Assembly (NCBI GenBank): GCA_036378175.1
Contig: DASUWY010000076.1
Coordinates: 1 to 64,000 of the forward strand
Reading direction: 5' to 3'
Source of the DNA: Thermoleophilaceae bacterium
GTDB lineage: Bacteria > Actinomycetota > Thermoleophilia > Solirubrobacterales > Thermoleophilaceae
Length of the DNA: 64,000 nt
Shown here: piece by piece, positions 6,941 to 9,336 of the stretch
How positions within the stretch are numbered: the stretch's first letter is position 1
Layout: each line of letters starts with the position of its first letter
Translations under genes and position numbers: made by a program
The notes under the pieces: generated by a model
Told to the model about the DNA's origin: nothing
The model's input: only the letters and a program-made list of their open reading frames with translations
Databases searched by the model: none

Positions 6941-8053
6941 ATGCAGTCGCACGCCGGGGACGAGGTCACCCAGCTGGAAACCCGTCAAGAGCCCCGGCTA
7001 GTGAGGGCGCTCGAGATGGTCGCGCCCGGCACGGCGGTGCGAGAGGGCATCGACGCGATCGGCCAGGGGCGGCTTGGAGCGCTGATCTGCATCGGTGACA
7101 GCGAGGAGCTGTCGTTCCTCTATTCGGGCGGCATCAAGCTCGACATCGACTACACCCCGGCGCTGCTCTACCAGGTGGCGAAGATGGACGGCGCGATCAT
7201 CCTCAACTCGAACGCGACGAAGATCTGCTGGGCGAACGTCCAGCTCATGCCGGACCCGACGATCCTCTCGCTAGAGACCGGCACGCGCCACCGCACCGCC
7301 GAGCGCGTGGCCAAGCAGACCGACGCGCTGGTGATCGCCGTGTCGGCGAGCCGCGACGTGGTGTCGCTCTACCTCGACGGCGCGAAGTACATCCTCGAGG
7401 ACATCCCGGTGGTGCTCGCCAAGGCCAACCAGGCCCTCGCCACGCTCGACAAGTACCGCAGCCGGCTCGACCAGGTGTCCACGCGCCTCACGGCGCTCGA
7501 GTTCGAGGGCGGCGTCACGCTCCACGACGTCCTCAACGTGCTCCAGCGCGGCGAGCTCGTCACGCGCATGGCCGTGGAGATCGAGCGCTACATCGTCGAG
7601 CTCGGCACCGAGGGCCGGCTCATCGAGATGCAGCTCGAGGAGACGATGGTGGGGGTGGCGGCCGACAAAGCGGCGCTGGTGCACGACTATCTGTCGCAGC
7701 CCAGCGAGGACAGCTTCGCGCTCGTGCTCGACTCGCTGGCCCGCCTGCCGCACCAGGACCTGCTCGACTTCGGGCGCCTGGCGGAGCTGCTGGGTTACGA
7801 CCGGAAGCTCAACACGCTCGACCATCCGGTGTCGCCACGCGGCTACCGCATCCTCGGGCGCATACCGCGACTGCCAAAGCTTGTGATCCAGGCCATCGTC
7901 CGCGACTTCGGCGGCCTGGACGAGATCTTGGCGGCTTCAGACGCAGAGCTGGAAGCCGTCGAGGGGGTGGGAGATATGCGGGCAAAGGACATCCGCGAGG
8001 GCCTTCGCCGACTGCAAGAGATCAACCTCGTGGACCGCTATCTGCAAACGTGA
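6941..8053 (+). CDS. disA: DNA integrity scanning diadenylate cyclase DisA
   Basis: DisA makes cyclic di-AMP from two ATP and scans DNA for branched structures. The 370-residue protein has the DAC domain with DGA at residues 83–85 and RHRTAER at 116–122, then a helical linker, then a C-terminal helix-hairpin-helix DNA-binding domain (LGRIPRLPKLVIQAIV… and VEGVGDMRAKDIREGL). Length is typical. A TAGAAT box 6 bases before the ATG and the absence of a Shine-Dalgarno sequence suggest a leaderless message, separately promoted from radA. No c-di-AMP riboswitch was recognised in the window. Confidence 0.97.
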   Translation: MQSHAGDEVTQLETRQEPRLVRALEMVAPGTAVREGIDAIGQGRLGALICIGDSEELSFLYSGGIKLDIDYTPALLYQVAKMDGAIILNSNATKICWANVQLMPDPTILSLETGTRHRTAERVAKQTDALVIAVSASRDVVSLYLDGAKYILEDIPVVLAKANQALATLDKYRSRLDQVSTRLTALEFEGGVTLHDVLNVLQRGELVTRMAVEIERYIVELGTEGRLIEMQLEETMVGVAADKAALVHDYLSQPSEDSFALVLDSLARLPHQDLLDFGRLAELLGYDRKLNTLDHPVSPRGYRILGRIPRLPKLVIQAIVRDFGGLDEILAASDAELEAVEGVGDMRAKDIREGLRRLQEINLVDRYLQT

Positions 8054-8090
8054 ATCGATGGGGGCAGTGATTCCGCTGCCGGCCTGAACA

Positions 8091-8104
8091 AGGAGGTCAC
8101 CATT
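8091..8104 (+). promoter_or_regulatory. Strong ribosome-binding site that fixes an ATT start for carD
   Basis: AGGAGGT (8091–8097) is a perfect Shine-Dalgarno sequence. It is followed after 4 bases by ATT (8102–8104), in frame with carD. No ATG, GTG, TTG or CTG lies in this frame between here and the conserved GTG at 8192. A small hairpin (GGCAG/CTGCC, 8063–8080) lies just upstream. Confidence 0.7.
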
Positions 8105-8689
8105 TCCGAAGAAGCAACTTGGGAGCAGGAGCTCGAAGAGCTCGAGATCAGCCGTGAGGCGCCGCACATCGACTACGAGGTCGGCGACCAGGTGGTCTAT
8201 CCGCATCACGGCGCTGGGAAGGTCGTAAAGAAGGAGCAGAAGGAGGTTCTGGGGGAGACCCGCGAGTACCTCACGATCAAGATCCTTCACAACGACATGA
8301 CCGTCATGGTTCCGTGCTGCAATGCCGGCAAGGCCGGCCTCCGGCGCGTCATCGGGGAGGAGGACGTCGCGCGCGTCCTGTCCGTTCTTCGCGATGACGT
8401 GAGCCAGATGCCGAAGAACTGGAACCGGCGCTTCAAGCACAACCGCGACAAGATCAAGACCGGCGACGTGTTCGAGCTTGCCGAGGTCGTGAGGAACCTC
8501 GCCATTCGGGAGAACGACAAGGGTCTTTCCACCGGGGAGAAGCAGATGTTCACCCGGGCGAAGAAGATCCTCGCCTCGGAGCTGATGTACGCCCTCGAGA
8601 TGGAAGAGGGGGAAGCCGAGGAGTACATCGACAACCTGATCGAGGAGTCGCACGCGCAGCGCGAGGGCGCTGCCGCGGCAGCCAAGTAG
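8102..8689 (+). CDS. carD: CarD family transcriptional regulator, probable ATT start
   Basis: CarD binds the RNA polymerase beta subunit and stabilises open promoter complexes; it is often essential in actinobacteria. The N-terminal Tudor-like domain (HIDYEVGDQVVYPHHGAG) and the helical DNA-binding C-terminal domain (NWNRRFKHNRDKI…, LTxGEKQMF) are clear. A start at the first ATG/GTG, 8192, would delete the first beta strand (YEVGDQ), so the gene must begin upstream. The ATT at 8102 with a perfect Shine-Dalgarno sequence gives 195 residues with an acidic 22-residue leader. AUU starts are known from infC and pcnB and are sensitive to initiation factor IF3. The gene leads the ispD–PHP–ispF–cysS–rlmB cluster. 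Confidence 0.93.
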   Translation: MSEEATWEQELEELEISREAPHIDYEVGDQVVYPHHGAGKVVKKEQKEVLGETREYLTIKILHNDMTVMVPCCNAGKAGLRRVIGEEDVARVLSVLRDDVSQMPKNWNRRFKHNRDKIKTGDVFELAEVVRNLAIRENDKGLSTGEKQMFTRAKKILASELMYALEMEEGEAEEYIDNLIEESHAQREGAAAAAK

Positions 8690-8700
8690 AGAATCCACGC

Positions 8701-9336
8701 ATGGCCGTCGTCGGGATCGTTCCCGCGGCCGGCAGCGGCGAACGCCTTGGTGCCTCCGGGCCCAAGGCGTTCGCCATGTGTGGCGGCCGTTCGCTGCTCG
8801 ATTGGAGCCTCGAGGTGCTCGAGTCGGTCTGCGACCGGGTGGTGGTGGCGGTGCCCGCCGGCTTCGAGGGTGAGGGACGCGTGCTCGGCGGGGCGTCGCG
8901 CTCCGAGTCGGTGAAGCTGGCCCTGGCCGCGGCGCCGGAGGCCACGGTGGCGGTTGTGCACGACGCCGCGCGACCGCTGATCACGCGCGAGCTCGTTCAG
9001 GAGTGCATCGAGGCCTTGCCGGATTGCGACGGTGTGGTGGCGGCGGCGCCGGTGTCGGACACGATCAAGGAGGCGGACGGCTCGGGACGCGTGGTGCGAA
9101 CGCTCGACCGCTCCGCGTTGTGGGCGATCCAGACGCCGCAGGTTTTTCGCGCCGACGTGCTGCGGCGCGCGCTCGACGTCGACGATGCCGTGCTGGCGGC
9201 CGCGACCGATGACGCTTCTCTGGTCGAGGCCGCGGGCGGCACGGTGCGCGTGGTGGAGGCACCGGCAGAAAACATCAAGGTCACGCGTCCGGTAGACCTC
9301 GCGCTCGCGGAAGCTCTCCTGCGAGCGCGATGCTGA
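8701..9336 (+). CDS. ispD: 2-C-methyl-D-erythritol 4-phosphate cytidylyltransferase
   Basis: IspD transfers CMP to methylerythritol phosphate in the non-mevalonate isoprenoid pathway. The 211-residue protein shows the nucleotide-binding AAGSGERLGASGPK (residues 9–22), HDAARPL, the DTIK segment and the C-terminal ENIKVTRPVDLALAEALL. Length is slightly short for the family but complete. It starts 11 bases after carD and overlaps the next gene by 7 bases (ATGCTGA), so it is probably translated in a chain with the following genes. Confidence 0.97.
   Translation: MAVVGIVPAAGSGERLGASGPKAFAMCGGRSLLDWSLEVLESVCDRVVVAVPAGFEGEGRVLGGASRSESVKLALAAAPEATVAVVHDAARPLITRELVQECIEALPDCDGVVAAAPVSDTIKEADGSGRVVRTLDRSALWAIQTPQVFRADVLRRALDVDDAVLAAATDDASLVEAAGGTVRVVEAPAENIKVTRPVDLALAEALLRARC

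What the first reader, a model, noticed from the sequence alone, without database searches (positions are those of the whole stretch)
8091..8192. carD appears to start with ATT behind a perfect Shine-Dalgarno sequence
The first standard start in frame (GTG 8192) would remove the first strand of the CarD domain (YEVGDQ). Upstream, AGGAGGT is followed after 4 bases by ATT, with no other start in between. AUU initiation is known in infC and pcnB, where it allows control by IF3 level. It would be a way to set the level of a global transcription regulator.
Basis: partly seen in the sequence, partly recalled or inferred. Interest (0 to 1): 0.6.

Follow-up and report, generated by a model that had tools for sequence, protein, structure and literature searches.

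The report
Order-wide AUU/AUC start of carD
A gene for a general regulator of RNA polymerase (CarD) appears to begin with the rare start signal AUU or AUC instead of AUG, and nearly all sampled members of one bacterial order keep this weak start, which suggests it is used to hold the protein's level down.

Summary
In detail: AAGGAGGT (8090-8097), CACC, then ATT at 8102. carD is open from the disA stop with no ATG, GTG or TTG before GTG 8192, which lies inside the CarD domain. It is not a sequencing error. Of 111 distinct carD loci of the same order (Solirubrobacterales by record names), 108 have ATT (69) or ATC (39) at the same place behind a Shine-Dalgarno sequence; one has ATG and one CTG there. 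In 30 of the 108 no canonical start exists between the upstream in-frame stop and the domain. The coding pattern of substitutions begins right after this codon. ATT makes up 64% of these starts but about 4% of Ile codons in the same genes. Other orders of the class lack the ~22-aa acidic extension and use TTG/GTG; the tree needs one switch plus two losses. infC is GTG-initiated. Best explanation: fMet initiation at AUU/AUC, aided by a strong SD, gives a low and probably IF3-sensitive dose of CarD. Initiation there is strongly supported; low yield follows from known cases; IF3 control is untested. It is a new member of a known kind (infC, pcnB, ccpN).

The parts
8090..8097 (+). Shine-Dalgarno sequence AAGGAGGT, 5 nt between its GGAGG and the start codon
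   Evidence: SD match of at least 5 nt in 106 of 113 scored loci, of at least 6 nt in 99 of these
8102..8104 (+). ATT start codon of carD
   Evidence: ATT or ATC in 108 of 111 distinct loci of the order
8102..8689 (+). carD, 195 aa from ATT to the stop codon
8102..8173 (+). acidic N-terminal extension of 24 codons, start codon included, low-confidence in the structure model
   Evidence: coding pattern of differences among relatives; pLDDT near 50
8174..8353 (+). CarD_TRCF_RID domain (PF02559), RNA polymerase interaction domain
8372..8632 (+). CarD_C domain (PF21095)
6941..8053 (+). upstream gene disA (diadenylate cyclase)
8701..9336 (+). downstream gene, ispD-like by its N-terminal motif (name recalled, no family search run)
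   Evidence: ORF; motif used

Best explanation
In this order of Actinomycetota (Solirubrobacterales by record names) carD is translated from a conserved near-cognate start codon, AUU or AUC, chosen by a strong Shine-Dalgarno sequence about 5 nt upstream. The ordinary fMet initiator tRNA (anticodon CAU) pairs with only two of the three codon bases. IF3 proofreads such complexes, so initiation succeeds rarely and CarD is made at a fraction of the AUG rate; the strong SD keeps it from falling to nothing. The result is a low, probably IF3- or growth-state-sensitive dose of a protein whose level sets RNA polymerase open-complex stability. Shown by comparison: the site, its conservation, the onset of coding there, and a single origin on the tree together with an N-terminal extension. 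Inferred: fMet at residue 1, low yield, and control by IF3.
For: 108 of 111 distinct order loci have ATT/ATC behind an SD. 30 of 108 have no ATG/GTG/TTG from the upstream in-frame stop to the domain, 53 of 108 none from ATT/ATC to the domain. Codon-position differences: flat upstream (0.69, 0.66, 0.67), coding-like in the extension (0.21, 0.19, 0.33) and in the domain (0.08, 0.05, 0.27), 148 non-independent pairs among 79 sequences. ATT:ATC is 69:39 at the start against 38:834 in the rest of the same genes. L140 has ATG at the same place. Second residue S, P or T in 102 of 113, as expected for Met removal (the rule is recalled). Near-cognate against canonical needs 3 changes on the tree. Only CAU among 2 matches to the initiator anticodon-stem pattern. 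Near-cognate starts with extended SD give about 10% of AUG expression in S. aureus (PMC13009471, passages); more IF3 lowers correct initiation for the AUU/CAU pair in vitro (PMC10158994, passages).
Against: No protein or ribosome data. SD-like runs before ATT/ATC also arise inside coding DNA: an inner stretch of carD gave 29 of 113 with the same procedure, so in one genome alone the motif would be weak. 78 of 108 loci do have some canonical codon in the open stretch. infC is GTG-started, so the classical IF3 loop is absent. No conserved leader structure (mean z 0.06). Two members of the order have, or may have, canonical starts (L140, L141).
Confidence: 0.88

Rival explanations
1. The true start lies downstream (GTG 8192, or an ATC at 8168 just before the domain, the place where other CarD proteins begin) and the extension is untranslated leader.
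For: CarD chains in the PDB and in other orders begin at about this place; an ATC stands there in many relatives.
Against: The extension shows the codon-position pattern of coding DNA and keeps its frame; the conserved SD is at the upstream codon; GTG 8192 would remove part of the domain.
Confidence: 0.05
2. The ATT/ATC is an inner Ile codon of a protein begun further upstream, for example by readthrough from disA.
For: In the window carD is in the frame of disA and open from its stop codon.
Against: Over the relatives the disA stop lies in all three frames (35, 32, 29; 17 of 113 not found), DNA upstream of the SD evolves without codon pattern, and ATT is far too common for an Ile codon in these genes.
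Confidence: 0.01
3. Sequencing or assembly error for ATG.
For: The genome is a draft of 89 contigs.
Against: The same ATT or ATC stands in independent assemblies, including named strains.
Confidence: 0.005
4. The start is AUU/AUC but has no regulatory meaning: a strong SD makes the third base nearly neutral.
For: ATT and ATC interchange at least 16 times on the tree.
Against: ATG appears there once and ATA never among 111, although ATG is one base away and normally best; other orders of the class also favour weak starts (TTG 25, GTG 16, ATG 3 of 45).
Confidence: 0.15
5. A dedicated initiator tRNA with a matching anticodon reads AUU/AUC, so initiation is efficient.
For: None found.
Against: Both matches to GGGCTNATAACCC in the genome carry CAU; the genome is 95% complete and only this pattern was searched.
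Confidence: 0.01

Closest known systems
ccpN (AUA) and cvfC1 (AUU) of Staphylococcus aureus, ccpN also in Bacillus subtilis (PMC13009471, passages read)
   Same: Near-cognate start with an extended SD, conserved in relatives, on a transcription regulator (ccpN); strong SD thought to rescue the weak codon.
   Different: Firmicutes; tested by ribosome profiling and reporters, which carD is not; here the codon is AUU or AUC and conservation spans an order of Actinomycetota.
infC and pcnB of Escherichia coli (AUU; recalled, with the Binns and Masters title seen in the reference list of PMC13009471)
   Same: AUU start, low expression, IF3 discrimination.
   Different: IF3 control is proven for infC; here infC itself starts with GTG and the near-cognate start is on carD.
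Mycobacterial CarD, whose dose is held down by Clp and the antisense RNA AscarD (PMC8820732, passages read)
   Same: Homologous protein (best E 1.6e-40 to PDB CarD chains), carD next to ispD in an operon, CarD dose controlled after transcription.
   Different: The matched PDB chains start near the domain without this extension; no start-codon control is mentioned in the passages read ('start codon' 0 occurrences).

Membership tests
Genes with conserved near-cognate (AUU/AUC/AUA) start codons | Near-cognate codon at the start position behind an SD, without a canonical alternative | tested here: met
   Window: no canonical codon from stop to domain; 30 of 108 relatives likewise, 53 of 108 from ATT/ATC to the domain
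Genes with conserved near-cognate (AUU/AUC/AUA) start codons | Conserved in related genomes | tested here: met
   108 of 111 distinct loci of the order
Genes with conserved near-cognate (AUU/AUC/AUA) start codons | Strong or extended SD | tested here: met
   At least 6 nt of SD match in 99 of the 106 loci with at least 5, of 113 scored
Genes with conserved near-cognate (AUU/AUC/AUA) start codons | Lower expression than with AUG | not testable with these tools
   Needs a reporter
Genes with conserved near-cognate (AUU/AUC/AUA) start codons | Expression falls when IF3 rises | not testable with these tools
   Needs IF3 variation; infC of the order is GTG-started
CarD | CarD_TRCF_RID and CarD_C domains | tested here: met
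   57.4 and 118.6 bits, over both curated cut-offs; PDB CarD chains at E down to 1.6e-40
CarD | Binds RNA polymerase and stabilises open complexes | not testable with these tools
   By homology only

The most novel reading that the evidence does not exclude
In this order CarD synthesis reads out initiation stringency: the AUU/AUC start makes the CarD level follow the balance of IF3 and ribosomes, so the state of translation initiation feeds back on RNA polymerase and rRNA transcription, with the near-cognate control element on carD instead of infC.
Probability: 0.3. Interest if true: 0.78.

Novelty: new member of a known kind. Interest (0 to 1): 0.62.

Why it matters
Few bacterial genes are known to start with AUU or its kin. 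This one appears fixed across an order and sits on a global regulator of RNA polymerase, so it makes start-codon weakness as a dosage control directly testable in a natural case. It also means that gene finders limited to ATG, GTG and TTG must truncate or mis-start CarD in this order.

Tried and rejected
Considered and rejected: base-call error (independent assemblies); downstream start and upstream fusion; special initiator tRNA; a conserved leader RNA element. The window's own leader folds slightly better than shuffles (z -1.9), but 108 relatives average z 0.06, and Rfam gave nothing.

Led nowhere: ispD as a positive control for SD-based start calling, since its SDs are weak. Literature searches on carD start codons returned mostly unrelated papers because 'CarD' matches other words. 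No paper on a near-cognate carD start was seen in the listings; these cover open-licence PMC papers only.

Hand decisions on start calls: L078 and L085 were called ATT by the script but set aside as outside the order (their records are not named to it; the tree puts them with other orders; an ATG follows shortly). L180 was re-read as ATT (script: TTG). L137 was taken at 48 codons from the 60-codon scan. L141 was counted as canonical. Dropped before counting: 21 of 134 (18 duplicates; L053, L127, L130 too short upstream, of which L053 shows ATC and L130 ATT). Of the 24 other-order loci, 10 went into the table of 45, with 25. In 18 of 108 loci two near-cognate codons stand side by side and the exact one cannot be told.

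Full report
What is there. The window carries disA (6941-8053), carD and an ispD-like gene in a row. Between the disA stop and the CarD domain the sequence reads AAGGAGGT-CACC-ATT, with ATT at 8102. The carD frame is open from the disA TGA to 8689 and has no ATG, GTG or TTG until GTG 8192. The protein has both CarD domains by Pfam and matches solved CarD chains from residue 22 to 180. GTG 8192 lies at the first predicted strand of the domain (residues 30-33), so a start there would remove YEVGDQ.

Relatives. The search for related loci gave 80 loci, the best of 126 relatives, mostly records named to Thermoleophilia or its orders; the genome search and the fetch from genomes added loci of the same order and class. 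From 134 candidate sequences (the window, the 80 loci, 53 chosen loci) 113 distinct ones with enough upstream DNA were scored. For each I asked which in-frame codon among ATG, GTG, TTG, CTG, ATT, ATC and ATA has the best SD match at proper spacing. After the hand decisions listed under Tried and rejected, two of the 113 fall outside the order; of the 111 in it, 69 have ATT, 39 ATC, one CTG (L059), one ATG (L140) and one an unclear canonical start (L141). Eight ATT/ATC loci come from named strains rather than bins, among them Solirubrobacter soli DSM 22325, Svornostia abyssi J379 and Conexibacter sp. CPCC 206217. A base-call error is therefore excluded.

Is it really a start? Five observations agree. 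First, in 30 of 108 loci there is no canonical start anywhere from the upstream in-frame stop to the domain, and in 53 none from ATT/ATC to the domain. Second, in 148 pairs among 79 sequences the difference rate by codon position is flat upstream of the SD (0.69, 0.66, 0.67) but typical of coding DNA in the extension (0.21, 0.19, 0.33) and in the domain (0.08, 0.05, 0.27); the pairs are not independent. Third, ATT dominates at the site while ATC dominates elsewhere in the same genes (69:39 against 38:834, Fisher p about 1e-49 without correction for kinship), so the codon does not behave as an ordinary Ile codon. Fourth, the disA stop lies in all three frames relative to it (35, 32, 29; not found in 17 of 113), so this is not a DisA fusion. 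Fifth, L140 has ATG at the very place. As controls, the same calling procedure gave ATT/ATC in 3 of 63 for disA and 10 of 81 for ispD. It gave 29 of 113 with an SD match of at least 5 in an inner coding stretch of carD, so SD plus ATT/ATC would be weak evidence in a single genome; the conservation carries the argument.

Distribution. In 45 sequences from other orders of the class the canonical codon nearest the domain is TTG (25), GTG (16) or ATG (3), with one unreadable; most begin right at the domain without the extension. In 25 further loci of the phylum outside the class my reading of the rows gives mostly ATG or GTG, one TTG and two unreadable. On a quick tree of the domain the order is one side of a branch; near-cognate (CTG included) against canonical needs 3 changes over 158 rows, which I read as one switch and two losses (L140, L141), and ATT/ATC interchange at least 16 times. 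The tree is a fast one with some long branches, so these counts are approximate.

Mechanism. Both matches to the initiator anticodon-stem pattern in the genome carry CAU, so AUU/AUC would be read by the ordinary fMet-tRNA with a third-position mismatch. From the literature: near-cognate starts with extended SDs gave about 10% of AUG expression in S. aureus, up to 30% for ccpN in rich medium (PMC13009471, passages), and raising IF3 lowered the correct product for the AUU/CAU pair in a reconstituted system (PMC10158994, passages). In mycobacteria CarD activates rRNA transcription, and its level is lowered in starvation by Clp and by an antisense RNA thought to act on translation (PMC8820732, passages). 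I infer that the weak start sets a low CarD dose and may make it respond to IF3 and growth state. That last step is not shown. infC of this order begins with GTG in 29 and TTG in 1 of 30 readable loci (31 examined; read from the printed rows, since the script's tally mis-scored some), so IF3 itself is not under the classical near-cognate loop here.

The extension. It begins 20-27 codons before the domain in most loci and about 48-52 in L137 and L013. It is acidic, with Ser, Pro or Thr as second residue in 102 of 113. The structure model gives it pLDDT near 50, so it is probably flexible. Val codons in it use GTG less than in the rest of the gene (42 of 185 against 588 of 1623), which would fit avoidance of inner starts but may reflect composition. 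Whether the extension or the weak start came first cannot be told; on the tree both mark the same order.

Comparison and novelty. The kind is known: infC and pcnB in E. coli (recalled), ccpN, cvfC1 and infC in S. aureus. The member appears new: no near-cognate carD start turned up in the searches. In the window's genome AAGGAGGN{3,7}ATT has 10 sites, of which I judge only carD a convincing start; the RTG version has 109 sites against 45 for the reversed-pattern control. So carD looks exceptional in this genome at this motif strength; weaker SDs and ATC were not surveyed.

Noticed in passing
L086 and L207-L236 (infC loci of the order): infC starts with a conserved GTG just after CTA or ATA, without an SD; a TTGAC-like box stands about 20 bases upstream in many. 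It looks leaderless or promoter-overlapping.
   Followed up: no
L087-L112 and L152-L198 (other orders of the class): carD in the other orders also avoids ATG: nearest canonical codon TTG 25, GTG 16, ATG 3 of 45. Weak starts may be older than the ATT/ATC start.
   Followed up: partly
L006, L008, L018, L027, L034, L035 and 12 more: In 18 of 108 loci two near-cognate codons stand in tandem at the start, such as ATC-ATT.
   Followed up: no
L013 and L137: Much longer acidic extension, start about 48-52 codons before the domain.
   Followed up: no
window 7937-8698, - strand: A 253-codon open frame runs antisense over the whole of carD, probably by chance in GC-rich DNA; mycobacteria have an antisense RNA to carD (PMC8820732).
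   Followed up: no
L200-L202: Three genomes of one family (f10) carry a second, divergent CarD-like gene, 27-28% identical to the window protein.
   Followed up: no
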